A stretch of 33,561 nt of DNA from a bacterium (GTDB taxonomy: Bacteria > Fidelibacterota > UBA2242), in assembly GCA_018824205.1 (NCBI GenBank), contig JAHJGX010000084.1, positions 1 to 33,561 on the forward strand, written 5' to 3'. Made by a program: the position numbers and the translations under genes. The notes under the pieces are model-generated. The model saw nothing but the letters and a program-made list of their open reading frames with translations, was not told the origin of the DNA and searched no databases. Positions 5,285 through 25,665 of the stretch are shown here, piece by piece; the stretch's first letter is position 1, and every line of letters starts with the position of its first letter.

Positions 5285-5371
5285 ATGAATTTCAATCGCC
5301 ACATAGACCATATTATTCTTTGGATTAGCCTGATTATTCTACTCGTAGATAGGAGGGAAGGGGCAGTTTAA
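5285..5371 (+). CDS. ilv operon leader peptide rich in Ile, Leu and Val
   Basis: A 28-codon open frame between the operon promoter and an intrinsic terminator. Residues 10-21 read IILWISLIILLV, so 10 of 12 are branched-chain amino acids. In total there are six Ile, four Leu and two Val. An in-frame ATG at 5273 could add four codons (MISE). Neither start has a strong Shine-Dalgarno site. The last codons before TAA (5355-5363, GGGAAGGGG) are complementary to the terminator's 5' arm. By analogy with enterobacterial ilvL, stalling at scarce Ile, Leu or Val tRNA would free this segment and allow read-through into ilvD. It is too short for normal gene callers. The regulatory role is inferred from composition, position and base pairing. 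Confidence 0.82.
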   Translation: MNFNRHIDHIILWISLIILLVDRREGAV

Positions 5372-5406
5372 ATTCCAGAGAAAAGAAAATTTTTAAACCC
5401 CTTCCC
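5355..5406 (+). promoter_or_regulatory. Antiterminator pairing of the ilv attenuator
   Basis: GGGAAGGGG (5355-5363) is the perfect complement of CCCCTTCCC (5398-5406). After a three-base bulge (CAG), TTTAAA (5367-5372) also pairs with TTTAAA (5392-5397). The structure therefore has about 15 base pairs and excludes the terminator, because it uses the terminator's 5' arm. The upstream strand overlaps the last leader codons, so a ribosome that reaches the leader stop would mask it. Confidence 0.75.
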
Positions 5407-5426
5407 GAAACGGAAGGGGTTTTTTT
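5395..5426 (+). terminator. Attenuator terminator before ilvD
   Basis: AAACCCCTTCC (5395-5405) pairs with GGAAGGGGTTT (5412-5422) around the loop CGAAAC and runs into a T tract. It lies 22 bases before the ilvD ATG, inside the operon leader, so it acts as a conditional terminator and not a gene-end terminator. Confidence 0.85.
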
Positions 5427-8874: not shown

Positions 8875-9393
8875 ATGGTTGAAAAGCACACAATTATCGT
8901 TACAGTCTTAAACAGTTCGGGGGTTCTGGCCCGGGTATCTGGTTTGCTGTCTCAGCGCGGGTATAATATTGAAAGCGTCATCGGGGCGCCCACAGAAGAC
9001 CCGAATGTCTATAAAATCAGCCTGGTGGTAGAGGAGAGCGACGAACATATTGAACAGATCATAAAACAGCTGAATAAGCTCGTCGATACAGTCCGGGTAA
9101 TGGACATTTCTCATAAAAATAACTATATCGTCCGGGAGTACATTATTCTGAAACTGGAAGTAAAGGAAAAAAACCGGACTGACCTGTTTCATCTGATGCA
9201 GGTATTTAAAGCCAATCCGATCGATGTGGCTACTGATCATGTGATTCTGGAATTGGCCGGGACCCCCCGGAAAATAGACCGCTTTATCGAGATGGTCCGT
9301 CCGTATGGAATTCAGGAGTATATTCGTAGCGGAGAATTTGCAATGGCTGAATATCAATTACCAAAAAAAGGAGAAAATAAAAATGGCGATTAA
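8875..9393 (+). CDS. ilvN: Acetolactate synthase small (regulatory) subunit
   Basis: A 172-residue partner of IlvB. The N-terminal ACT domain starts at [28 protein letters not shown], the region that binds valine for feedback inhibition in this family. The C-terminal ALS_ss domain includes [11 protein letters not shown] and the [21 protein letters not shown] stretch. Length and domain order match the usual IlvN/IlvH of about 160-175 residues. Its 3' end overlaps the ilvC start by 11 bases. Confidence 0.95.
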
Positions 9394-10384
9394 GATGTAT
9401 TACGACAAAGATGCTGATCAGAAAGTATTAAAAGAAAAAACGATTGCGATTATTGGTTATGGCAGTCAGGGTCATGCTCAGGCGCAGAACCTGCGGGATA
9501 GTGGCTATACCGTGATTGTCGCGGATGTAGAAGGCAGTGACAATTTCAAACTGGCTCAAAGTCATGGTTTCAAACCGGCGTCAGCCGCAGAAGCCAGCGC
9601 GAAGGCTGATGTAATTCAGATTTTGGTACCCGATGAATTGCAGAAACGCATTTATACCGAAGAGATCAAACAGAACCTGACACCCGGTAAAGCACTTGTA
9701 TTCTCGCACGGTTTTAATATTCATTTCGGGCAGGTTGTACCTCCAAAGGATGTGGATGTCTACATGGTGGCCCCGAAAGGACCCGGTCATCTGGTCCGCC
9801 GTCAATATGAAATCGGCGCCGGAGTGCCGTCGCTGATTGCCATTTACCAGGATGCCACCGGTAAAGCCAAAGACCTGGCCTTGGCACATGCTTGTGGAAT
9901 TGGCGCGGGGCGTGCCGGGATTATCGAGACTAGCTTTAAAGAAGAAACAGAGACCGATCTCTTTGGAGAACAGGCTGTACTCTGCGGTGGTGTTTCGGAA
10001 CTGATCAAAGCCGGTTTTCAGACCCTGGTTGAGGCCGGCTACCAGCCGGAAATAGCCTATTTCGAATGTCTGCATGAAATGAAATTGATCGTGGACCTGT
10101 TTTATGAGGGCGGTATCGCCGGAATGTACTACTCCGTCAGTGATACGGCGGAATACGGCGGAATGAGCCGGGGGCCGCGATTGGTCAACGATGATGTAAA
10201 GAAAGAAATGAAGGCCATTCTTCGGGAAGTTCAGGACGGACGCTTTGCCAAAGAGTGGATTCTGGAAAATCAGGCCGGGCGGCCGACATTGAATGCACTG
10301 CGTCGTGAACACGATGAATTGCTGATCGAAAAAACCGGTAAGCAATTGCGCGGAATGATGGCGTGGTTGAAAAAAGGAAAATAA
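9383..10384 (+). CDS. ilvC: Ketol-acid reductoisomerase, class I
   Basis: A 333-residue class I enzyme that isomerises and reduces acetolactate and acetohydroxybutyrate. I chose the ATG at 9383 because AAAGGAGA precedes it and the protein then begins [12 protein letters not shown] as in the family. A longer in-frame start inside ilvN is unlikely. The nucleotide-binding [17 protein letters not shown] is at about 25-41. The [21 protein letters not shown] and [12 protein letters not shown] motifs carry the metal and substrate residues. The loop after the second strand (ADVEGSDNF) lacks the Arg usual in NADPH-dependent enzymes and is acidic, so NADH use is possible. Confidence 0.96.
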
Positions 10385-16402: not shown

Positions 16403-17131
16403 TTACTTTTTCTCAGTTGTATACTTTTTTTGTTTTTCCAAGAACCTTAGTTGAGTATTTATATTTTTATCGTATTCTCTATCAAAATTTGGAATATGTT
16501 TTGTGCTATTTTGTGAATGATTTTTATAGGTGCCCCAACTTGGATAGTAATCGTCGACTTGATTACCCCAACAATACCAATTTTCTCTTGAACCTCTTGC
16601 GAACATTTCTAAATAAGGCCCCCAACTACAAGATTCAATTATAGCATATTGCTCATCTGGTTTTCTGCTATGTTCTCTTTTTTGTTTTACAATAATATTT
16701 TCTTGAGTTCTGCCAGGTTTTAGCGTGCGTATGTTCTTTCCTTTAACTCCAAACAATAACATTTCAGTTACATTTCTAAAATAGAATCCAACACCTCTTC
16801 TGTCTGGACCACCATCTTTTCGTATTTTATACCAAATTATATTTGTTTTATAAGTAAAACCCCAAGCTTTCATTACCTCAAGACCTTCGAATAAAAGTGC
16901 ATTTGGAACCCACAAATATAGGTGAGCAGATTCAGATAATACATCCTTTACAGGTATATTTTTTATCTGTTCTAATTTTATTGTTGGATATCTAGCAAGG
17001 CGTTTATGTTCAGGTGCCATTTTTCCTGTACGATTCTGAAATTGCCAGGGTGGATCTGCTAGTATTGTTGAGAATTTATTATCTTTTACAAATTTCCTAA
17101 AATCATCTGCAGCTGTCATAATATTATTCAC
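16403..17131 (-). CDS. MT-A70 family DNA adenine methyltransferase
   Basis: A 242-residue SAM-dependent N6-adenine methyltransferase of the MT-A70 family. The catalytic DPPW motif is at about residues 26-29 (ILADPPWQFQNRTG). YLWVPNALLFEGLEVMKAWGF and FYFRNVTEMLLFGVKG are typical of the family. It overlaps the stop of the restriction enzyme gene by eight bases at a GTG start; an ATG four codons further (17119) is an alternative. As partner of the adjacent nuclease it should protect host DNA at the shared site. Codon use is strongly A/T-ending, unlike leuB and hisG, which suggests horizontal transfer. Confidence 0.88.
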   Translation of the reverse strand: MNNIMTAADDFRKFVKDNKFSTILADPPWQFQNRTGKMAPEHKRLARYPTIKLEQIKNIPVKDVLSESAHLYLWVPNALLFEGLEVMKAWGFTYKTNIIWYKIRKDGGPDRRGVGFYFRNVTEMLLFGVKGKNIRTLKPGRTQENIIVKQKREHSRKPDEQYAIIESCSWGPYLEMFARGSRENWYCWGNQVDDYYPSWGTYKNHSQNSTKHIPNFDREYDKNINTQLRFLEKQKKYTTEKK

Positions 17132-17747
17132 GATCTTTGATGAGTTTTGTTGTTATTCCAAATACTAATACTGGACAACCACCATTACGACCCGCAATTA
17201 ACCTTGGTAATAATTTTCCCATATGTGTTGTACTTGCTCCATACTTATTTTTTACTCCCAATTCCTTGAATAATGGATCCAGATCATTACTCCTTGTAAC
17301 TAATATCCCTAAACTAATTGCATCATACTCGAAAAAAGCTCTGAATGCGTATAAATCTCGATCAAATGTCTGATCTTTACTGTTCCATTCAAGATCAAAT
17401 GCTACCCGGCCTTTAATGTAGTCTACTTTATGTGATCCGTGGCTTATTGAGCTTTTCAATTCTTTAGTAGATCTACCTTTTATTTCAAAGACATTCAATT
17501 CTGCCCCAAGATTTCTTTCTTGCCATCCTACAGGTCTTAAAATATTTGAGACTAATTTGGGGATATGGCTCTCGTTTCCCCCTGAGGCTATAATATCATC
17601 TGTGGTAAACCTAAAGATTCTAAGAGCATTACAGATTTCATCAAATTCTTTTGGAAATTCTTTAGATAAAATTGCAGCAGCATGCTTAAAATCATGGATT
17701 TCGTATAAATTACTGAGATCGTTTGGTATGTAATCTTGCCAAGTCAT
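17124..17747 (-). CDS. BglII/BstYI-family type II restriction endonuclease
   Basis: A 207-residue protein that fits the BglII/BstYI group of type II restriction enzymes. A candidate PD-(D/E)XK-type active site is Asp109 in HKVDYIKG with Glu120 and Asn122 in AFDLEWNSKDQTFDRDL; BglII uses Asp84, Glu93 and Gln95 in a similar layout. The C-terminal THMGKLLPRL and GGCPVLVFGIT stretches look conserved in this family. AAGGA lies before the ATG. The methyltransferase gene overlaps its 3' end, an ordinary type II arrangement. The recognition sequence cannot be read from here. Base composition is AT-rich relative to the flanks. Confidence 0.85.
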   Translation of the reverse strand: MTWQDYIPNDLSNLYEIHDFKHAAAILSKEFPKEFDEICNALRIFRFTTDDIIASGGNESHIPKLVSNILRPVGWQERNLGAELNVFEIKGRSTKELKSSISHGSHKVDYIKGRVAFDLEWNSKDQTFDRDLYAFRAFFEYDAISLGILVTRSNDLDPLFKELGVKNKYGASTTHMGKLLPRLIAGRNGGCPVLVFGITTKLIKDRE

Positions 17748-17859: not shown

Positions 17860-18201
17860 TCATTTACGAAACACAATCAACCCTGCAATCCCGTGGAACA
17901 TCAGAATAGATGTGATGCTGAGAAACATCCAGTTGTCACCGATGGCGTGGCCGTTGATCGCAACACCGGAAAAGTGGCTGATCAGGTAGATGGTAATGAT
18001 AACCAGAGCAATCGACAAATTTCCCGCCTTATAGAATAACTGCAATTCTCGCTCATCCGGTTTTGTCATTTTTCTAATGCGCATGATAACCGGTAGCAGC
18101 GCGAACAGGGCGAAACTGGCGGCGCCGGCCTGTCCAAATAAGAGCATACAGATAATACAAAATAATCCCACAATGCTTTCGAACCAAAATCTGAAAATCA
18201 T
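17860..18201 (-). CDS. Small four-helix membrane protein
   Basis: A 113-residue protein with about four hydrophobic segments: FESIVGLFCIICMLLFG, ASFALFALLPVIM, LSIALVIITIYLIS and MFLSITSILMFHGIAGLIV. A charged loop, RIRKMTKPDERELQLFYKAG, follows the second. The DEREL motif before a transmembrane segment is seen in several small bacterial membrane protein families of unknown function that pair with XRE regulators. It starts one base after the regulator stop, with GGAGG inside the regulator's last codons. The precise role is not known to me. Confidence 0.75.
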   Translation of the reverse strand: MIFRFWFESIVGLFCIICMLLFGQAGAASFALFALLPVIMRIRKMTKPDERELQLFYKAGNLSIALVIITIYLISHFSGVAINGHAIGDNWMFLSITSILMFHGIAGLIVFRK

Positions 18202-18202
18202 C

Positions 18203-18409
18203 TTATTTCTCCTCCATGTAAAACAGGTCTTCGATCCGGCACTGGAACAGGTTGGCCATTTTCAATGCCAGTTTGACCGACGGATTGAACTTCCCGCTTT
18301 CAATGGCAATAATAGTTTGACGGGACACATCCAGGGCTTCGGCCATTTTTTCCTGGGTTAACTGATTGTTGTCGAACCGATATCTTTTTAAATTGTTCTT
18401 TAATTCCAT
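18203..18409 (-). CDS. Small XRE-family helix-turn-helix regulator
   Basis: A 68-residue Cro/CI-type DNA-binding protein that is almost entirely one HTH domain: LTQEKMAEALDVSRQTIIAIESG, followed by NPSVKLALKMANLFQCRIEDLF. I chose the ATG at 18409, since GGAG lies eight bases ahead and the protein then begins MELKNNLKRYR; longer in-frame starts exist upstream. Such compact regulators commonly sit directly before a small membrane protein, as here. Two GTATTATATAC dyads around its promoter suggest autoregulation. It is not clearly tied to the restriction genes, which lie beyond a 112-base gap. Confidence 0.88.
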   Translation of the reverse strand: MELKNNLKRYRFDNNQLTQEKMAEALDVSRQTIIAIESGKFNPSVKLALKMANLFQCRIEDLFYMEEK

Positions 18410-18432
18410 CACATTCTCCATAATTCTGATCA

Positions 18433-18461
18433 AATGTAGTGTATTATATACATCATGTCAA
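18433..18461 (-). promoter_or_regulatory. Promoter of the XRE regulator gene
   Basis: On the minus strand TTGACA (18461-18456) and TACATT (18438-18433) are 17 bases apart. Transcription would start near 18426, about 17 bases before the chosen ATG. Confidence 0.55.
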
Positions 18462-18498: not shown

Positions 18499-18533
18499 GA
18501 AAAATTATCATTGTAAAAACACGGCATGCCGTG
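18499..18533 (+). repeat. Direct repeat, right copy (leuB-tail duplicate plus palindrome)
   Basis: The 17-base GAAAAATTATCATTGTA is repeated here outside any gene. It is followed by the perfect 14-base palindrome CACGGCATGCCGTG (18520-18533) and T-rich sequence. It lies 15 bases before the his promoter. Confidence 0.8.
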
Positions 18534-18547
18534 TCACTACTTTTTAA

Positions 18548-18576
18548 TTGACAATAGAAAAAAAAACTGCTACTTT
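18548..18576 (+). promoter_or_regulatory. Promoter of the his operon
   Basis: TTGACA at 18548-18553 and TACTTT at 18571-18576 with a 17-base spacer. The -35 box is perfect and the -10 box is weak (three of six). Transcription would begin near 18583, before the leader ATG. Confidence 0.5.
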
Positions 18577-18600
18577 CCGACTGGAATTATTGAGAAAGAC

Positions 18601-18663
18601 ATGACACTGAATACACATCATCTGAATCATCATATTTCCCGGAGAGGAACTGGGATGAGATAG
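18601..18663 (+). CDS. his operon leader peptide with two His-His pairs
   Basis: A 20-codon open frame that starts ATG ACA CTG AAT ACA CAT CAT and continues CTG AAT CAT CAT. Histidine is at residues 6, 7, 10 and 11. GAGAAAG lies just before the ATG. Codons 16-18 (18646-18654, GGAACTGGG) can pair with the terminator's 5' arm. The design parallels enterobacterial hisL: stalling at His codons when charged His-tRNA is scarce would favour the antiterminator. The role is inferred from composition, position and pairing. Confidence 0.82.
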   Translation: MTLNTHHLNHHISRRGTGMR

Positions 18664-18698
18664 TGTGATTCTCAAAGCGTAGATTTTAGCCCGGTTCC
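18646..18698 (+). promoter_or_regulatory. Antiterminator pairing of the his attenuator
   Basis: GGAACTGGG (18646-18654) pairs over nine bases with CCCGGTTCC (18690-18698), with one G-U pair. It uses the whole 5' arm of the terminator and is therefore mutually exclusive with it. A ribosome at the leader stop would cover much of the upstream strand. A short TTCC/GGAA hairpin (18636-18649) might be the competing pause structure, but it is weak. Confidence 0.7.
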
Positions 18699-18719
18699 CC
18701 ACAAAGAACCGGGTTTTTT
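18690..18719 (+). terminator. Attenuator terminator before hisG
   Basis: CCCGGTTC (18690-18697) pairs with GAACCGGG (18706-18713), followed by TTTTTT. It lies between the leader peptide stop and the hisG Shine-Dalgarno site, so it serves as a conditional terminator. Confidence 0.85.
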
Positions 18720-18736
18720 ATTATGAAAGGAAACTT

Positions 18737-19591
18737 ATGTTAACACTTGCAATCCAAAAATCCGGCCGGCTCAGTGAAAAAACCGTCAAGCTGCTGCATG
18801 AATGCGGTATCGCATTCGAAAATGGCGGCAGTTCCAAACTGAAGTCAAAGGCCAGCAATTTTCCCATGCAGATACTTTATCTGCGTGATGATGATATTCC
18901 CGAATGTGTGGCCGACGGCATTGCCGATATCGGTATCGTCGGCGAAAATATCTATCGGGAAAAGAACCGACCGTTGAAAATTATTGAGCGTTTGGGATTT
19001 GCCCGCTGCCGTCTGTCAATTGCTGTTCCGAAAAGTATGGAATACAGAAATGCCGGTGATTTGAATGGATTGAATATCGCCACGTCTTATCCTAATATTT
19101 TAAAAACATTTTTAGACGAAAAGAAAATTAACGCCAATGTGCATGAGATCAGCGGTTCGGTAGAAATTGCTCCGGGAATCGGCTTGGCCGATGCGATTTT
19201 TGATATCGTCAGCACCGGGAGTACCCTGCTGTCGAACGGTTTGCGGGAAGTTGAAACAGTAATACGTTCGGAAGCAGTGTTGGTCGTCGGTGAAAAGTTA
19301 GCTGCTGAAAAGCAGGAATTACTGAACAAACTGTTGTTCAGGATTCGGGCGGTACAGACTGCCGGCAACCGGAAATATATTTTGTTGAATGCCCCGAACG
19401 ATCGAATCAAGGACATATGTAAATTGCTGCCCGGTATGAAAAGCCCGACGATTATGCCACTTTCCACAGAAGGCTGGAGCTCGGTTCATTCGGTTATCGA
19501 AGAAGATGAATTCTGGGAGAAGATCGAGGCGTTGAAGGCTGCCGGCGCCCAGGGCATTCTGGTCATTCCCATTGAAAAAATGATCTTATAG
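18737..19591 (+). CDS. hisG: ATP phosphoribosyltransferase, long form
   Basis: A 284-residue enzyme for the first, feedback-controlled step of histidine synthesis, from ATP and PRPP to phosphoribosyl-ATP. The N-terminus LTLAIQKSGRLSEKTVKLL and the periplasmic-binding-like catalytic region (ADIGIVGENI, GLADAIFDIVSTGSTL) are typical. A C-terminal HisG_C ACT-like domain of about 75 residues follows (KYILLNAPNDRIKDICKLLPG), so this is the long form that needs no HisZ. AAAGGA precedes the ATG. It is the first structural gene after the his attenuator. Confidence 0.96.
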   Translation: MLTLAIQKSGRLSEKTVKLLHECGIAFENGGSSKLKSKASNFPMQILYLRDDDIPECVADGIADIGIVGENIYREKNRPLKIIERLGFARCRLSIAVPKSMEYRNAGDLNGLNIATSYPNILKTFLDEKKINANVHEISGSVEIAPGIGLADAIFDIVSTGSTLLSNGLREVETVIRSEAVLVVGEKLAAEKQELLNKLLFRIRAVQTAGNRKYILLNAPNDRIKDICKLLPGMKSPTIMPLSTEGWSSVHSVIEEDEFWEKIEALKAAGAQGILVIPIEKMIL

Positions 19592-19599
19592 AGGTCAGC

Positions 19600-20901
19600 A
19601 TGGAAGTATATCTATATCCAAAACGAGAAGATTGGTTGGAACTTTTAAAACGTCCGCAAAATTCGGCTGAAATTGCCGAAGCGAGTGTTATTGCGATTTT
19701 GGAAGCGGTGCGAAAAAGCGGTGATGCGGCATTATTTGACTTTGGCCGGAAATTCGATGATGTTATGCTTGATGATTTGAGGGTATCGGAAACTGAATTT
19801 GAGCGTGCATCTGAAAAAGTTACTCCTGAACTGAGAAATGCTATCCAATTAGCCATCGATAATATCACAAAATTCCACAAATCACAATTAATACAGGAAC
19901 CGGTAGTCGAAACCCAACCGGGCGTTCGCTGCTGGCGAAAAAGCGTTCCGATTGAAAAAGTCGGCCTCTACATTCCCGGCGGGACTGCTCCTCTGTTTTC
20001 GACAGTCCTGATGCTGGCAATTCCGGCGAAAATTGCGGGATGTTCCGAGATTGTCTTGTGTACACCACCGGCGAAGGATGGCAGCGTCAATCCGGTCATT
20101 CTCTATGTGGCAAAAGAGTTGGGTGTGACGAAGATGTTCAAAATCGGCGGCGCTCAGGCGGTGGCGGCTATGGCTTATGGAACGGAAAATGTGCCGCGGG
20201 TGGATAAAATATTCGGGCCGGGAAATTCCTGGGTTACGCTGGCCAAACAACTGGTCAGTCGTGACGGCGTGGCCATCGATATGCCCGCCGGTCCGTCGGA
20301 ACTAGCGGTTGTGGCGGATGAAACCGCCAATCCGGAATTTGTCGCAGTGGACCTGCTTTCCCAGGCCGAACATGGCGTTGACAGCCAGGTAATTCTGGTA
20401 ACGGACAGTGAACCCCTTGTGAAAGATGTTCAGGTAGCGGTTCAGCGTCAGTTGCAGGAACTGCCCAGGAGAGAGATTGCTGAAAAAGCATTGGAAAACA
20501 GCCGAATAATTCTGCTGCAAGACTCAGATGAAATGAAAGATTTTGCCAACGCCTATGCACCGGAACATTTGATCATTATGACGAAAGATGCAGATAAACT
20601 GGCCGAAAAGGTCATCAATGCCGGCAGCGTGTTTATCGGCGCCTACACACCGGAATCCGCCGGTGATTATGCTTCGGGAACGAATCACACATTACCAACT
20701 TACGGTTATGCCCGCAATTACAGTGGATTATCAGTCGATAGCTTTGTTAAAAAAATCACTTTTCAGTCACTTTCGCGAAATGGTCTTCAAGCCATTGGGA
20801 ATGCCATCGAATGCATGGCGGCGGCCGAAGGACTGGATGCTCATAAAAACGCGGTATCGATTCGCCTTTCGTCACTGGAGAAGGAGTCTGTGAATGCTTG
20901 A
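19600..20901 (+). CDS. hisD: Histidinol dehydrogenase
   Basis: A 433-residue zinc enzyme that oxidises histidinol to histidine in two NAD-dependent steps. Motifs include PGGTAPLFSTVLMLAIPAKI, GGAQAVAAMAYGT, KIFGPGNSWVTLAK, DMPAGPSELAVVADETA and LLSQAEHG, followed by NAYAPEHLII and ASGTNHTLPTYGYAR near the C-terminus. GAGGT precedes the ATG. Its 3' end overlaps hisC by eight bases. Confidence 0.97.
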   Translation: MEVYLYPKREDWLELLKRPQNSAEIAEASVIAILEAVRKSGDAALFDFGRKFDDVMLDDLRVSETEFERASEKVTPELRNAIQLAIDNITKFHKSQLIQEPVVETQPGVRCWRKSVPIEKVGLYIPGGTAPLFSTVLMLAIPAKIAGCSEIVLCTPPAKDGSVNPVILYVAKELGVTKMFKIGGAQAVAAMAYGTENVPRVDKIFGPGNSWVTLAKQLVSRDGVAIDMPAGPSELAVVADETANPEFVAVDLLSQAEHGVDSQVILVTDSEPLVKDVQVAVQRQLQELPRREIAEKALENSRIILLQDSDEMKDFANAYAPEHLIIMTKDADKLAEKVINAGSVFIGAYTPESAGDYASGTNHTLPTYGYARNYSGLSVDSFVKKITFQSLSRNGLQAIGNAIECMAAAEGLDAHKNAVSIRLSSLEKESVNA

Positions 20902-21940
20902 TATTCAACGGTTAGCCCGGAAAAACGTTCGGGAATTGAAGCCCTATTCCTGCGCCCGGGATGAGTATAATGGGGATACCGGTATTTTCCTGGATGCCAA
21001 TGAAAATTCAATTGGCTCAGTCTTGAACATAGATCTGAATCGCTACCCCGATCCCCGGCAAATCGAACTGAAAGCCCGGATCGCGGCGATTAAAGGAAGT
21101 ACGATGGACCGTCTGTTTCTGGGAAATGGCAGCGATGAGGTGATTGATCTGCTGATTCGGGCATTTTGCGAACCGGCTGATGATAAAATCATGATATTAC
21201 CGCCGACATACGGGATGTATAAAGTGGCAGCAGATATCAATAATGTGGCTCTCGTTGAAGTTCTGCTGACCCCGGCTTTTCAGATTGACACAGTCTCGGT
21301 TTTGCGGAATACCGATTCGGTGAAACTCATCTTTATCTGTTCGCCCAATAATCCCACAAGTAATTGTCTTCGGGAATCGGACATTCAGAAGATTTTGGAA
21401 AATTTCATTGGTTTAGTTATCATCGATGAAGCCTATATCGATTTTGCACCGGAACACAGTTGGCTCCCGAAACTGAATCAATACCCGAACTTGGTCATCA
21501 TGCAGACTTTTTCAAAAGCCTGGGGACTGGCGAGTATTCGCCTTGGGATGGCCTTTGCCGACTCGCAGATTATTGAATTGCTGACGAAAATAAAATATCC
21601 CTACAATGTCAATGGCGCAACGCAGCAGCTGGCACTTGAGGCATTGTCATATGTGGATAAAAAAAACGATCTGGTGGCACAAATTCTGACTGAACGGGAG
21701 GCATTAATTAAACAATTGAAAAATCTCAAGATTGTGAAAACTGTTTATCCAAGCGACGCCAATTTTGTGCTGGTGAAATTTCAGGGGGCCAAAAAGGTTT
21801 TTGATTTTCTGATTGACAAACAGATAATCGTTCGGGACCGGTCGAATGTCATTCGTTGTGAGGAAAGTTTGCGGATTACGGTTGGCACCGCCGAAGAGAA
21901 TAAAACATTGATAAATACATTGAAAATATACAGAGGTTAA
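20894..21940 (+). CDS. hisC: Histidinol-phosphate aminotransferase
   Basis: A 348-residue fold-type I PLP aminotransferase that converts imidazole acetol phosphate to histidinol phosphate. LDANENSIGS near the N-terminus, LFLGNGSDEVIDLLIRAF, PPTYGMYKVAA, CSPNNPTSN, VIIDEAYIDFA and the PLP-lysine region TFSKAWGLASIRLGMA are all present. The start overlaps hisD, with AAGGAG a few bases ahead inside hisD. Confidence 0.96.
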   Translation: MLDIQRLARKNVRELKPYSCARDEYNGDTGIFLDANENSIGSVLNIDLNRYPDPRQIELKARIAAIKGSTMDRLFLGNGSDEVIDLLIRAFCEPADDKIMILPPTYGMYKVAADINNVALVEVLLTPAFQIDTVSVLRNTDSVKLIFICSPNNPTSNCLRESDIQKILENFIGLVIIDEAYIDFAPEHSWLPKLNQYPNLVIMQTFSKAWGLASIRLGMAFADSQIIELLTKIKYPYNVNGATQQLALEALSYVDKKNDLVAQILTEREALIKQLKNLKIVKTVYPSDANFVLVKFQGAKKVFDFLIDKQIIVRDRSNVIRCEESLRITVGTAEENKTLINTLKIYRG

Positions 21941-21943
21941 ATA

Positions 21944-23035
21944 ATGAAAAAGGTCCTATTTATCGATCGCGATGGAACCCTGATTTTGGAACCACCGGAC
22001 CAGCAGGTGGATTCTCTGGAGAAACTGGAGTTTTACCCCGGTGTGATTACGGCGCTGGGGAAAATTGTCAGGGAACTGGATTACGAACTGGTAATGGTCA
22101 GCAATCAGGATGGGCTGGGAACTATCTCTTTTCCCGAGGATAATTTTTGGACGGTGCAGAACAAAATGATGTCTACATTCCGGAATGAAGGAATTGTTTT
22201 CAGCGATATTTTGATCGATCACAGCCTGCCGAAAGACAATGCTCCAACACGCAAGCCTCGAACCGGGATGTTGACAAAATACATGGTGGGGAATTTTGAT
22301 CTGGCCAATTCCTATGTCATTGGCGACCGGGAAACTGACATTCAACTGGCGGAAAACCTGGGTTCAAAAGCCATTTATCTCGGCGACAACAAAGATGTGA
22401 AAGCGGATTGGATTACAAGTGATTGGGAGGAAATTTATCGCTACCTGGCATATCCGCAACGCTGTGTTACGATTAAACGTAAAACCAGTGAAACCGATAT
22501 TAATCTCAAACTTTGTCTTGAGAGTGATGGAAAAAGTAACGTCGATACAGGAATTGGTTTTCTTGATCATATGTTGACGCTGCTGGTTGAGCATTCAGGA
22601 TGCCGGATGGAATTGAAAGCCAAAGGTGATCTGAAAGTGGATGAACATCATACCGCTGAAGATGTCGCGCTGGTATGCGGAGAGGCATTCAACAAAGCAC
22701 TGGGCGATAAAGCAGGCATTAACCGCTATGGTTTTTTGCTGCCGATGGACGAATCACTAGCCCAGGTAGCGATTGATTTTTCGGGTCGCAGCGAACTGGT
22801 CTGGGATGCTAAATTTCAACGTGAATATATCGGTAAAATGCCCACTGAACTTTTTTACCATTTTTTCAAATCCTTTGCCGACACAGCCAAATGCAATCTC
22901 AATATCAACGTCAGTGGCGAAAATGAACATCACAAGATTGAAGCGATATTCAAGGCTGTCGGACGGGCGATTCGGATGGCCATTCGCCGGGATGAACGCA
23001 ATGCCGGGATTCCCAGCACAAAGGGTGTGCTATGA
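21944..23035 (+). CDS. hisB: Bifunctional histidinol-phosphatase / imidazoleglycerol-phosphate dehydratase
   Basis: A 363-residue fusion. The N-terminal HAD phosphatase (about 1-165) has the nucleophile motif FIDRDGTLI and GDRETDIQLAENLG. The C-terminal dehydratase (about 170-363) has DEHHTAEDVAL, FLDHMLTLLVEHSG and the second metal motif EHHKIEAIFKAVGRAIR. In E. coli HisB a zinc loop (Cys-X-His and Cys-X-Cys) sits before the RKP motif. Here the same place reads IDHSLPKDNAPTRKPR, with no cysteine. This loop-less form is, to my knowledge, common in Bacteroidota. The stop overlaps hisH by four bases. Confidence 0.96.
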   Translation: MKKVLFIDRDGTLILEPPDQQVDSLEKLEFYPGVITALGKIVRELDYELVMVSNQDGLGTISFPEDNFWTVQNKMMSTFRNEGIVFSDILIDHSLPKDNAPTRKPRTGMLTKYMVGNFDLANSYVIGDRETDIQLAENLGSKAIYLGDNKDVKADWITSDWEEIYRYLAYPQRCVTIKRKTSETDINLKLCLESDGKSNVDTGIGFLDHMLTLLVEHSGCRMELKAKGDLKVDEHHTAEDVALVCGEAFNKALGDKAGINRYGFLLPMDESLAQVAIDFSGRSELVWDAKFQREYIGKMPTELFYHFFKSFADTAKCNLNINVSGENEHHKIEAIFKAVGRAIRMAIRRDERNAGIPSTKGVL

Positions 23036-23613
23036 ACATCGCGGTGATCAAATATAACGCCGGGAATATTCACTCTGTACGACTGGCGCTGCAGCGTTTG
23101 GGGATTGACCCGTTGGTGACTGATGATTTACAGGAAATTCGTTCTGCGGACAAGGTGATCTTTCCCGGAGTTGGTGAAGCATCGTCGGCGATGGAAAATA
23201 TCAGGCGGAGCGGTATCGCCGATCTGATTCCGTTACTAACACAACCGGTCCTTGGAATCTGTCTCGGTCTGCAATTGCTGTGTCGGAATTCCGAAGAAAA
23301 TAGCAGCAAATGTCTCGGTATCTTCAATACAGATGTGCGGCGTTTTCCGCCGGATGATAAGGTGCCGCATATGGGCTGGAACCAAATTCGCGATTTGAAA
23401 GGTGATCTGTTTCGAAAAGTCGATCCAGATGCGTATGTCTATTTTGTCCATAGTTATTATGCCGAATTGGATACCTTTACGATAGCGACTACGGATTACA
23501 TCTTACCATTCAGTGCGGCTATGCAGCAGGATAATTTTTATGCCGTGCAGTTCCATCCCGAAAAGAGCGGGACTGTCGGTGAACAGATATTGCGGAATTT
23601 TTTAGCACTATGA
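23032..23613 (+). CDS. hisH: Imidazole glycerol phosphate synthase glutaminase subunit
   Basis: A 193-residue class I glutamine amidotransferase that supplies ammonia to HisF. FPGVGEASSAM carries the oxyanion region, GICLGLQLLC the catalytic Cys, and VQFHPEKSG the His and Glu. VHSYYA is also characteristic. It overlaps hisB and hisA by four bases each, but it is separated from its partner hisF by hisA, as in enterobacteria. Confidence 0.96.
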   Translation: MNIAVIKYNAGNIHSVRLALQRLGIDPLVTDDLQEIRSADKVIFPGVGEASSAMENIRRSGIADLIPLLTQPVLGICLGLQLLCRNSEENSSKCLGIFNTDVRRFPPDDKVPHMGWNQIRDLKGDLFRKVDPDAYVYFVHSYYAELDTFTIATTDYILPFSAAMQQDNFYAVQFHPEKSGTVGEQILRNFLAL

Positions 23614-24332
23614 TTACGATTATACCGGCTATCGATATTATTGATGGAAAATGTGTGCGCCTGAGCCGGGGCGAATTCGACAGTAAGAAAATATATGATC
23701 AGAATCCGCTGGATGTGGCAAAAAGGTTTCAGGATCTAGGAATTCTACGGTTGCACCTTGTTGATCTGGATGGCGCCCGGACAAAAAAAGTAGTCAACTG
23801 GGCGGTGCTGGAAATAATCGCATCAAAAACCGAACTGGTCATTGATTTTGGCGGCGGAGTGCAGACCGATGAGGACTTACGAATTGCCTTTGAGTCGGGG
23901 GCGGCGATGATTACCGCCGGCAGCATTTCGGTAAAAGAACCAAAGAAAGTTCATGATTGGCTGAAACAATTTGGCAGTGAAAAGATTATCCTGGGCGCCG
24001 ATGTCAAAGATCGCAAGATCGCCATTCACGGTTGGCAAGAGGAATCGGACCGTGATCTGTTTCAATTTCTGGAGGAGTATATGGAAAAGGGAATCACTCA
24101 AACGATTTGCACCGATGTTTCCAGAGATGGTATGCTGAGCGGGCCGGCCTTTATACTTTATCAGGAAATAAAAGAAGGCTTTCCCGATTTATATCTTGTT
24201 GCCAGTGGCGGAGTCAGCAATATCGATGATGTTCATCAATTGAATGATAATAGAATTGATGCGGTGATCATTGGCAAAGCCATTTATGAAGGCCGGATCC
24301 AATTGGCCGAGCTGAAAGGATTTTTATGTTAG
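23610..24332 (+). CDS. hisA: ProFAR isomerase (HisA)
   Basis: A 240-residue half-barrel-repeat TIM barrel that isomerises ProFAR to PRFAR. The catalytic Asp of the first strand is in [18 protein letters not shown]. The second catalytic region is [24 protein letters not shown] and [10 protein letters not shown] are the two phosphate-binding loops. It overlaps hisF by seven bases. Confidence 0.96.
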
Positions 24333-25081
24333 CGAAACGGATCATTCCCTGTTTGGATATCAGGGATGGGCAGACAGTCAAGGGTGTGAATTTTATTAAT
24401 ATCCGGCATGCTGGTGATCCGGTGGAACTGGGTGCCGCCTATGCTGAGCAGGGCGCCGATGAACTGGTTTACCTGGACATTACAGCATCGGTGGAAAAAC
24501 GCCGAACTTTTGCCGGATTGGTGGAAAAAGTTGCACGGACGCTGACCATTCCTTTTACGGTTGGTGGCGGCATCCGCAACGAGGATGATGTGGCCCGTTT
24601 GCTGGATGCCGGAGCGGATAAGATTTCCATCAATACCGCCGCTGTCAACAATCCGGATTTGGTTGAAATTCTGGCCAGACGTTTCGGCAGCCAGTGCATT
24701 GTCGTAGCGATCGATACCAAGCATACGGAAACCGGCGATATTGTTTATATTCATGGCGGACGAACGCCAACGGAGAGAATTACCCGGGACTGGGCAATGG
24801 AAATCGTTGATCGCGGTGCCGGGGAAATCCTGCTGACATCCATGGATCACGACGGCACGAAAAATGGTTTTGCTTTGAAGATAATTCGGGAGTTGGCTGA
24901 AAATCTGCCGATTCCGGTGATTGCCTCCGGCGGCGCCGGCACGCGCAATCATTTTTTGGATGTTTTTAACGAGGGAAAAGCCGATGCGGCGCTGGCCGCC
25001 AGTGTGTTTCACTTCGGCGAAATTCCGATCCCCGATTTGAAACGGTATTTACGAGAGAATAAAATAGAGGTGCGCTTATGA
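24326..25081 (+). CDS. hisF: Imidazole glycerol phosphate synthase cyclase subunit
   Basis: A 251-residue TIM barrel that uses HisH-derived ammonia to make imidazole glycerol phosphate and AICAR. The catalytic Asp residues are in [19 protein letters not shown] and [19 protein letters not shown] and [11 protein letters not shown] bind the phosphates. Length and motif order match the family. The stop overlaps hisI by four bases (ATGA). Confidence 0.97.
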
Positions 25082-25665
25082 AAATAGATTTTGACAGAGG
25101 ACTTATTCCGGCGATCGTGCAGGATGATCAGACCGGCAAAGTGCTGATGCTGGGTTATATGAACCGGATTGCCTACGAGAAAACACTGGAAACCGGCAAG
25201 GTTACGTTTTTCAGCAGGTCTCGCCAGCAGCTTTGGACAAAAGGGGAAACGTCGGGAAATTTCCTGTTGTCGAAAGAAATTCTGATTGATTGTGACGGCG
25301 ATACATTGTTAGTGAAAGCAAATCCCGCCGGCCCGATCTGTCATACCGGCGCCGACACCTGTTTTAAGGAAATCAACCGCGACAGCAGGGTTTTTCTTTT
25401 TGTTTTAGAGAAAATAATTGCCGATCGTAAAGCCAATCCGAAACCGGGTTCTTACACCAATAAACTCTTCGATGCCGGGATCAACCGGATTGCCCAGAAG
25501 ATTGGTGAAGAAGCAACGGAGGTTGTGATCGATGCCGTCAGTGATAATGTTCCCGGTATGAAAAAAGAAGTCGCCGATCTGCTTTACCATCTGTTGGTCC
25601 TCCTGGCAGAGAAGGATGTCTCTGTGGCTGAGGTTTTAGATATTTTAACAAGCCGGCATAAATAA
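25078..25665 (+). CDS. hisIE: Bifunctional phosphoribosyl-AMP cyclohydrolase / phosphoribosyl-ATP pyrophosphatase
   Basis: A 195-residue fusion for the second and third steps of histidine synthesis. The N-terminal cyclohydrolase (about 1-105) shows [32 protein letters not shown], a DCDGDTLL metal motif and [12 protein letters not shown]. The C-terminal MazG-like pyrophosphatase has [14 protein letters not shown] and [15 protein letters not shown]. It closes the operon. No clear intrinsic terminator follows. Confidence 0.96.

What the first reader, a model, noticed from the sequence alone, without database searches (positions are those of the whole stretch)
18548..18736. Leader-peptide attenuator of the his operon
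A 20-codon frame with His-His at residues 6-7 and 10-11 precedes a CCCGGTTC/GAACCGGG terminator ahead of hisG. GGAACTGGG, codons 16-18 of the leader, pairs with the terminator arm over nine bases. The ilv and his leaders share one design: the antiterminator strand is coded by the last leader codons, and the terminator sits 20-35 bases before the first gene. Two independent cases in 13 kb suggest that transcription attenuation is a general amino-acid control in this organism.
Basis: partly seen in the sequence, partly recalled or inferred. Interest (0 to 1): 0.8.

Follow-up and report, generated by a model that had tools for sequence, protein, structure and literature searches.

The report
Histidine operon leader-peptide attenuator
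Just before the histidine-making genes of this uncultured bacterium lies a tiny histidine-rich reading frame and an RNA switch that very probably stops transcription when histidine is plentiful; this textbook mechanism is here strongly conserved in a phylum where I found no earlier report of it.

Summary
The window is from a Candidatus Neomarinimicrobiota MAG. A 20-codon frame (18601-18663, MTLNTHHLNHHISRRGTGMR) precedes an intrinsic terminator (18688-18715) and a complete hisGDCBHAFIE operon. GGAACTGGG in codons 16-18 pairs with the terminator's 5' arm. In 5000 dinucleotide shuffles, none gave both the His-His pairs and this pairing. All 21 Neomarinimicrobiota genomes searched that carry this type of hisG have a His-rich leader there, as do many Bacteroidota, where arm sequences are completely different but still complementary. 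The antiterminator strand usually starts 10-17 nt after the last His codon and ends near the leader stop, as a ribosome-controlled switch needs. The general claim also holds: an amino-acid-blind detector found exactly two attenuators in the window (his, ilv); a conserved Tyr leader precedes tyrA in the same genome, Trp leaders precede trpE and Phe/Tyr leaders DAHP synthase in relatives. This is a new member of a known kind: ribosome-mediated attenuation, in a little-studied phylum and outside Rfam's His_leader model. Tandem his and ilv attenuators in some relatives are the most unusual feature. There are no expression data.

The parts
18548..18576 (+). Probable promoter: TTGACA (18548-18553), 17-nt spacer, TACTTT (18571-18576)
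   Evidence: Read from the sequence; TTGACA followed by TA(C/T)TTT at similar spacing is kept in the four other genomes of the genus. The -10 is only 3/6 to TATAAT, so the consensus scan did not list it.
18592..18599 (+). GAGAAAGA, weak Shine-Dalgarno-like stretch before the leader ATG
   Evidence: Sequence; inference.
18601..18663 (+). Leader peptide frame MTLNTHHLNHHISRRGTGMR, stop TAG
   Evidence: His-rich leader conserved in 21 of 21 Neomarinimicrobiota genomes with this hisG type.
18616..18633 (+). Regulatory His codons CAT CAT (18616-18621) and CAT CAT (18628-18633)
   Evidence: His runs conserved with synonymous and positional variation in relatives.
18637..18655 (+). Possible 1:2 hairpin, TCCCGG (18637-18642) with CTGGGA (18650-18655), which would sequester the antiterminator strand
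   Evidence: MFE fold; region -7.9 kcal/mol against a shuffled mean of -3.5 in this leader, but not conserved in the sister genus.
18646..18654 (+). Antiterminator strand (segment 2) GGAACTGGG, leader codons 16-18; pairing can extend to 18661
   Evidence: begins 12 nt after the last His codon.
18690..18698 (+). Segment 3, CCCGGTTCC: shared between antiterminator and terminator
18688..18719 (+). Intrinsic terminator: 10-pair stem 18688-18715 (CCCGGTTC/GAACCGGG core), T-run 18714-18719
18737..25665 (+). Controlled operon hisG, hisD, hisC, hisB (bifunctional), hisH, hisA, hisF, hisIE
   Evidence: NCBIfam equivalog matches.
5285..5371 (+). Second attenuator of the same design: ilv leader MNFNRHIDHIILWISLIILLVDRREGAV
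   Evidence: conserved in 14 of 14 assessable relatives.
5355..5363 (+). ilv antiterminator strand GGGAAGGGG in the last leader codons
   Evidence: pairs with CCCCTTCCC over 9 bp.
5395..5422 (+). ilv terminator stem before ilvD-ilvB-ilvN-ilvC-cimA-leuA-leuC-leuD-leuB

Best explanation
A ribosome-mediated (leader-peptide) transcription attenuator of the his operon. Transcription starts shortly after the TTGACA promoter and a ribosome begins the leader frame. If His-tRNA is scarce, the ribosome stalls on the His codons at 18616-18633. Its leading edge then lies just short of GGAACTGGG, so that strand pairs with CCCGGTTCC as soon as the latter is transcribed; the terminator cannot form and RNA polymerase goes on into hisG-hisIE. 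If His-tRNA is plentiful, the ribosome runs to the TAG and covers GGAACTGGG, so CCCGGTTC pairs with GAACCGGG and transcription stops before hisG. Shown by computation: the anatomy, its conservation, the compatible geometry and the mutually exclusive pairings. Inferred: that the frame is translated, that charged His-tRNA is the signal, and the amount of termination.
For: His-rich leader upstream of hisG in 21/21 Neomarinimicrobiota genomes with this hisG type and in most Bacteroidota loci; a strict pipeline found His-rich frame plus terminator in 79 of 105 loci. Arm sequences differ fully between lineages (CCCGGTTC here, GGCTTGCC or CGTCTGA in Bacteroidota) yet leader strand, terminator 5' arm and 3' arm remain complementary; pairing to a locus's own terminator is better than to other loci's (median score 18.5 against 13.0, Mann-Whitney p about 1e-17, relatedness not corrected). 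Distance from last His codon to antiterminator strand is 12 nt in all five genomes of the genus and 10-17 nt in 48 of 54 loci; the strand ends between -8 and +16 of the stop in 53 of 54. Folding with a ribosome footprint removed: stalled on the last His codon, the antiterminator forms in 52 of 53 loci; ribosome at the stop, the terminator forms in 54 of 54. Chance tests: 0 of 5000. The same architecture precedes ilvD, tyrA, trpE and DAHP synthase with the matching amino acid each time, which neither a generic small gene nor an accidental frame explains.
Against: No expression, ribosome-profiling or transcript-end data. The organism is known only from MAGs. The ribosome-state folds assume an E. 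coli-like footprint and 37 C. The leader's Shine-Dalgarno is weak. The 1:2 protector hairpin of classical attenuators is not conserved here, so what happens without any translation is uncertain. In some Bacteroidales loci no pairing with the terminator's 5' arm was found.
Confidence: 0.94

Rival explanations
1. The terminator belongs to an unrelated short transcript or small protein gene, and the His-rich frame is an accident or encodes a functional His-rich (for example metal-binding) micropeptide.
For: A short frame and a terminator alone are common; His-rich peptides can bind metals (general knowledge).
Against: Position before hisG is conserved over phyla while the peptide outside the His run is not, except where it codes the antiterminator strand (RRGTGMR in the genus); other operons carry Ile/Leu, Tyr, Trp or Phe/Tyr runs matching their own product.
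Confidence: 0.03
2. A T-box, a histidine riboswitch or a protein-binding attenuator senses histidine and the frame is incidental.
For: T-boxes and a repressor (HisR) control his genes in Firmicutes (PMC9413887).
Against: No Rfam cis-regulatory family, T-box included, reached its gathering score in the window or in 18 related loci; at E up to 10 only sub-threshold matches appeared in the leader. The 24 nt between leader stop and terminator leave no room for an aptamer.
Confidence: 0.01
3. Leader-peptide control, but acting mainly on translation initiation or through Rho rather than through the intrinsic terminator.
For: Some attenuators sequester the ribosome-binding site instead of terminating (stated in PMC9413887).
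Against: Strong 10-pair stem with six T directly after it, 21 nt before hisG, whose own AAAGGA ribosome site lies outside the stem.
Confidence: 0.02

Closest known systems
his operon attenuator of Enterobacteriaceae (hisL; Rfam His_leader RF00514)
   Same: His-codon run in a short leader peptide, terminator just before the first his gene, antiterminator strand positioned so that a ribosome on the His codons leaves it free and a ribosome at the stop masks it.
   Different: No match to any Rfam leader model at its threshold; four His codons in two pairs against seven consecutive His in E. coli (the latter from memory); the antiterminator strand lies inside the coding frame; the 1:2 hairpin is not conserved.
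Candidate his attenuators of Bacillus cereus group, Eubacteriales and Erysipelotrichales (PMC9413887) and of hisS/hisZ in Bacilli (PMC2965389)
   Same: Same kind: His-rich leader peptide, terminator and alternative antiterminator found by comparative genomics.
   Different: Different phylum and unrelated sequences; here much wider conservation.
Structured 5' elements and leader-peptide clues upstream of amino-acid operons in Flavobacterium psychrophilum, including a hisG element (PMC9723704)
   Same: Nearest published hint in the FCB group; very probably the same regulatory kind in Bacteroidota.
   Different: That paper reports clues within Flavobacteriaceae; the text read does not describe Neomarinimicrobiota, the pairing geometry or tandem leaders.
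ilvBNC-type branched-chain attenuators (for example Corynebacterium glutamicum, PMC11857589, abstract only)
   Same: The ilv leader at 5285 is rich in Ile/Leu/Val codons and has alternative terminator and antiterminator pairings.
   Different: Controls a large ilvDBNC-cimA-leuACDB operon; looks like a two-hairpin design rather than the three-hairpin model discussed for C. glutamicum.

Membership tests
Ribosome-mediated transcription attenuator of an amino-acid operon (class) | Short translated-looking frame with a run of codons for the operon's end product | tested here: met
   His-His twice in 20 codons before a full his operon; conserved.
Ribosome-mediated transcription attenuator of an amino-acid operon (class) | Intrinsic terminator between leader frame and first structural gene | tested here: met
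   Stem 18688-18715 plus T-run, 21 nt before hisG.
Ribosome-mediated transcription attenuator of an amino-acid operon (class) | Antiterminator that excludes the terminator and is placed so that ribosome position decides | tested here: met
   9-bp pairing shares the terminator 5' arm; 12 nt from last His codon; masked by a ribosome at the stop.
Ribosome-mediated transcription attenuator of an amino-acid operon (class) | 1:2 (pause/protector) hairpin | tested here: inconclusive
   -7.9 kcal/mol against -3.5 shuffled in this leader, but absent or weak in the sister genus and family.
Ribosome-mediated transcription attenuator of an amino-acid operon (class) | Read-through depends on charged tRNA(His) and leader translation | not testable with these tools
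   Needs reporter, Term-seq or ribosome profiling.
Rfam His_leader (RF00514) | Match to the covariance model at the gathering score | tested here: not met
   No match in the window or in 18 related loci; not listed even at E up to 10 for 18540-18740.
T-box riboswitch (His) | T-box covariance model match | tested here: not met
   No Rfam match at gathering and none.

The most novel reading that the evidence does not exclude
Leader-peptide attenuation is the ancestral, general amino-acid control of the Neomarinimicrobiota-Bacteroidota branch (his, ilv-leu, trp, tyr, aro), and some lineages stack two complete attenuators for the same amino acid in series before one operon (his in L007, L026, L041, L047, L090; ilv in L118), which would tighten or sharpen the response.
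Probability: 0.55. Interest if true: 0.5.

Novelty: new member of a known kind. Interest (0 to 1): 0.36.

Why it matters
A 2022 paper (PMC9413887) still describes his RNA attenuators as a proteobacterial trait to which it adds a few Firmicutes, and Flavobacteriaceae show only hints. Here the mechanism is supported, by conservation and geometry, in an uncultured phylum and widely in Bacteroidota, for several amino acids. If it works as proposed, transcription and translation must be coupled closely enough in these bacteria for a ribosome to steer a nascent RNA, something hard to learn otherwise from MAGs. The leaders also offer in-genome readouts of amino-acid limitation for metatranscriptomes.

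Tried and rejected
The sample included contigs chosen because they carry aromatic genes, so the Tyr leader is not an unbiased find; one further detector hit (L246) looks like a chance match and was judged spurious. Rfam: no useful match. The 45-codon frame starting at 18526 was rejected as leader because its start lies upstream of the promoter. Leaders for threonine (homoserine dehydrogenase) and pheA: none found. A search for the Trp leader motif in the window's own genome found nothing, and trpE was not found in the assembly. Searches for earlier reports in Neomarinimicrobiota and for tandem leader peptides of one amino acid found none, but the paper library lacks most subscription journals. 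In one script, loci on the minus strand were printed in the wrong orientation (L086-L089, L100); later calls corrected this.

Full report
WHAT IS THERE. The window lies in a Candidatus Neomarinimicrobiota MAG: the nearest named HisG relatives (92 and 87% identity) are from that phylum and the assembly has four congeners in the searchable set. The details in the finding are right: a 20-codon frame at 18601-18663 encoding MTLNTHHLNHHISRRGTGMR, His-His at residues 6-7 and 10-11, GGAACTGGG in codons 16-18, a CCCGGTTC/GAACCGGG terminator with six T, and hisG 21 nt further on. The operon is complete: hisG, D, C, B, H, A, F, IE. A TTGACA-N17-TACTTT promoter precedes the leader and is kept in the genus.

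MORE THAN CHANCE. In 5000 dinucleotide shuffles of the leader with the terminator held fixed, one gave a frame with two His-His pairs, 23 gave an equally good antiterminator pairing and none gave both. I wrote a detector that knows nothing of amino acids (short ATG frame, terminator before a long frame, complement of the terminator's 5' arm near the leader stop). It gave exactly two places in the window on both strands, the ilv and the his leader, none in 20 shuffled windows, and in 638 kb of the same genome two more: one before tyrA and one probably spurious.

CONSERVATION. All 21 Neomarinimicrobiota genomes with this type of hisG (60% identity or more) have a His-rich leader upstream. Most Bacteroidota loci have one as well: a strict pipeline found His-rich frame plus terminator in 79 of 105 loci with enough upstream sequence. 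More divergent hisG copies (27-49% identity) mostly lack it. In the genus the peptide outside the His run is conserved mainly where it codes the antiterminator strand (RRGTGMR), as expected if the RNA, not the peptide, is selected there. Between lineages the arms are replaced wholesale (CCCGGTTC; CCCGATTC; CCTGGTTC; GGCTTGCC; CGTCTGAG) while strands 2, 3 and 4 stay complementary. Leaders pair better with their own terminator than with those of other loci.

GEOMETRY. A leader attenuator makes two predictions. First, a ribosome stalled on the last regulatory codon must leave the antiterminator strand free: it covers about 9 nt beyond that codon (general knowledge), and the strand begins 12 nt beyond it in this genus and 10-17 nt in 48 of 54 loci. 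Second, a ribosome at the stop must mask it: the strand ends at -8 to +16 from the stop in 53 of 54. Folding the RNA with the footprint removed gives the antiterminator in 52 of 53 loci in the stalled state and the terminator in 54 of 54 with the ribosome at the stop. Without a ribosome the picture is mixed (antiterminator in 16 of 54): the 1:2 hairpin TCCCGG/CTGGGA is stable here (-7.9 kcal/mol) but is not conserved even in the sister genus, so the ribosome itself may be the main switch (inference).

GENERALITY. tyrA: a Tyr leader (NYTLYF, antiterminator strand CAGGTCCGCGG) in four genomes of the genus, including this one. trpE: WWW leaders in two congeners and two family members; in the congeners the antiterminator strand seems to pair with the terminator loop as much as with its arm (read by eye). 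DAHP synthase: Phe/Tyr leaders in two family members. Not seen at homoserine dehydrogenase or pheA.

TANDEM LEADERS. Four Bacteroidota loci (L007, L026, L041, L047) and one Neomarinimicrobiota (L090) have two His-rich leader frames, each with its own terminator, in series before hisG. In L041 and L047 both members have a good antiterminator strand; in L090 one is good and one moderate; in L007 and L026 none was found. The L090 genome (G016) also has two ilv leaders in series (L118). Tandem attenuators are known for Salmonella mgtCBR, with two different frames (PMC3641672, abstract), but I found no paper on two leaders for the same amino acid.

WHAT IS KNOWN. PMC2965389 stated in 2010 that leader-peptide systems had not been shown outside Proteobacteria and Actinobacteria and added a His leader in Bacilli; PMC9413887 added his attenuators in a few Firmicutes in 2022; PMC9723704 mentions leader-peptide clues and a conserved, non-Rfam 5' element before hisG in Flavobacteriaceae. 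Nothing was found for Neomarinimicrobiota. The Rfam His_leader model does not match. The finding is therefore a member of the class by anatomy, not a member of the Rfam family, and a new member of a known kind.

LIMITS. Everything rests on sequence. Relatedness among loci is not corrected for in the pairing statistics. Translation of the leader, the signal and the degree of termination are inferred.

Noticed in passing
L007, L026, L041, L047, L090 (upstream of hisG): Two His-rich leader frames, each with its own terminator, in series before hisG.
   Followed up: partly
L118:1147-1421 (genome G016): Two Ile-rich leader frames with separate terminators in series before ilvD, in the same genome that has tandem his leaders.
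   Followed up: partly
L240:724-816 (G000 contig C114): Tyr-codon leader MMKRELTYMPINYTLYFTGHIYTGPRIQNQ with an 11-bp antiterminator before a chorismate mutase-prephenate dehydrogenase gene; conserved in three congeners.
   Followed up: yes
L155, L156, L157 (before trpE): NWWW leaders whose antiterminator strand appears to pair with the terminator's loop (GAAATGCC with GGCATTTC) rather than mainly its 5' arm.
   Followed up: partly
L005, L006, L014, L021, L025, L035: Bacteroidota his leaders with GGTTTGCA-type terminators: no strand complementary to the 5' arm; instead TGCAGT-like strands just after the leader stop match the loop and 3' arm. A different antitermination geometry, or none.
   Followed up: partly
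window 16403-17747 (-): A BglII-type restriction endonuclease (PF09195) and an MT-A70 methyltransferase (PF05063), back to back between the leu and his operons.
   Followed up: no
window 17860-18433 (-): Small XRE-like helix-turn-helix protein with a downstream small membrane protein, directly upstream of the his leader on the other strand (read from the translations, no family search).
   Followed up: no
window 9305-10384: The listed ilvC frame begins inside ilvN; family models start at residue 29, so the true start is probably near 9389.
   Followed up: no
L099, L091 promoters: Promoters upstream of some his leaders in relatives (TAAATTTG, TATATTTG) look like the Bacteroidota TAnnTTTG type (recalled from memory), while this genus shows TTGACA-N17-TACTTT.
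   Followed up: no
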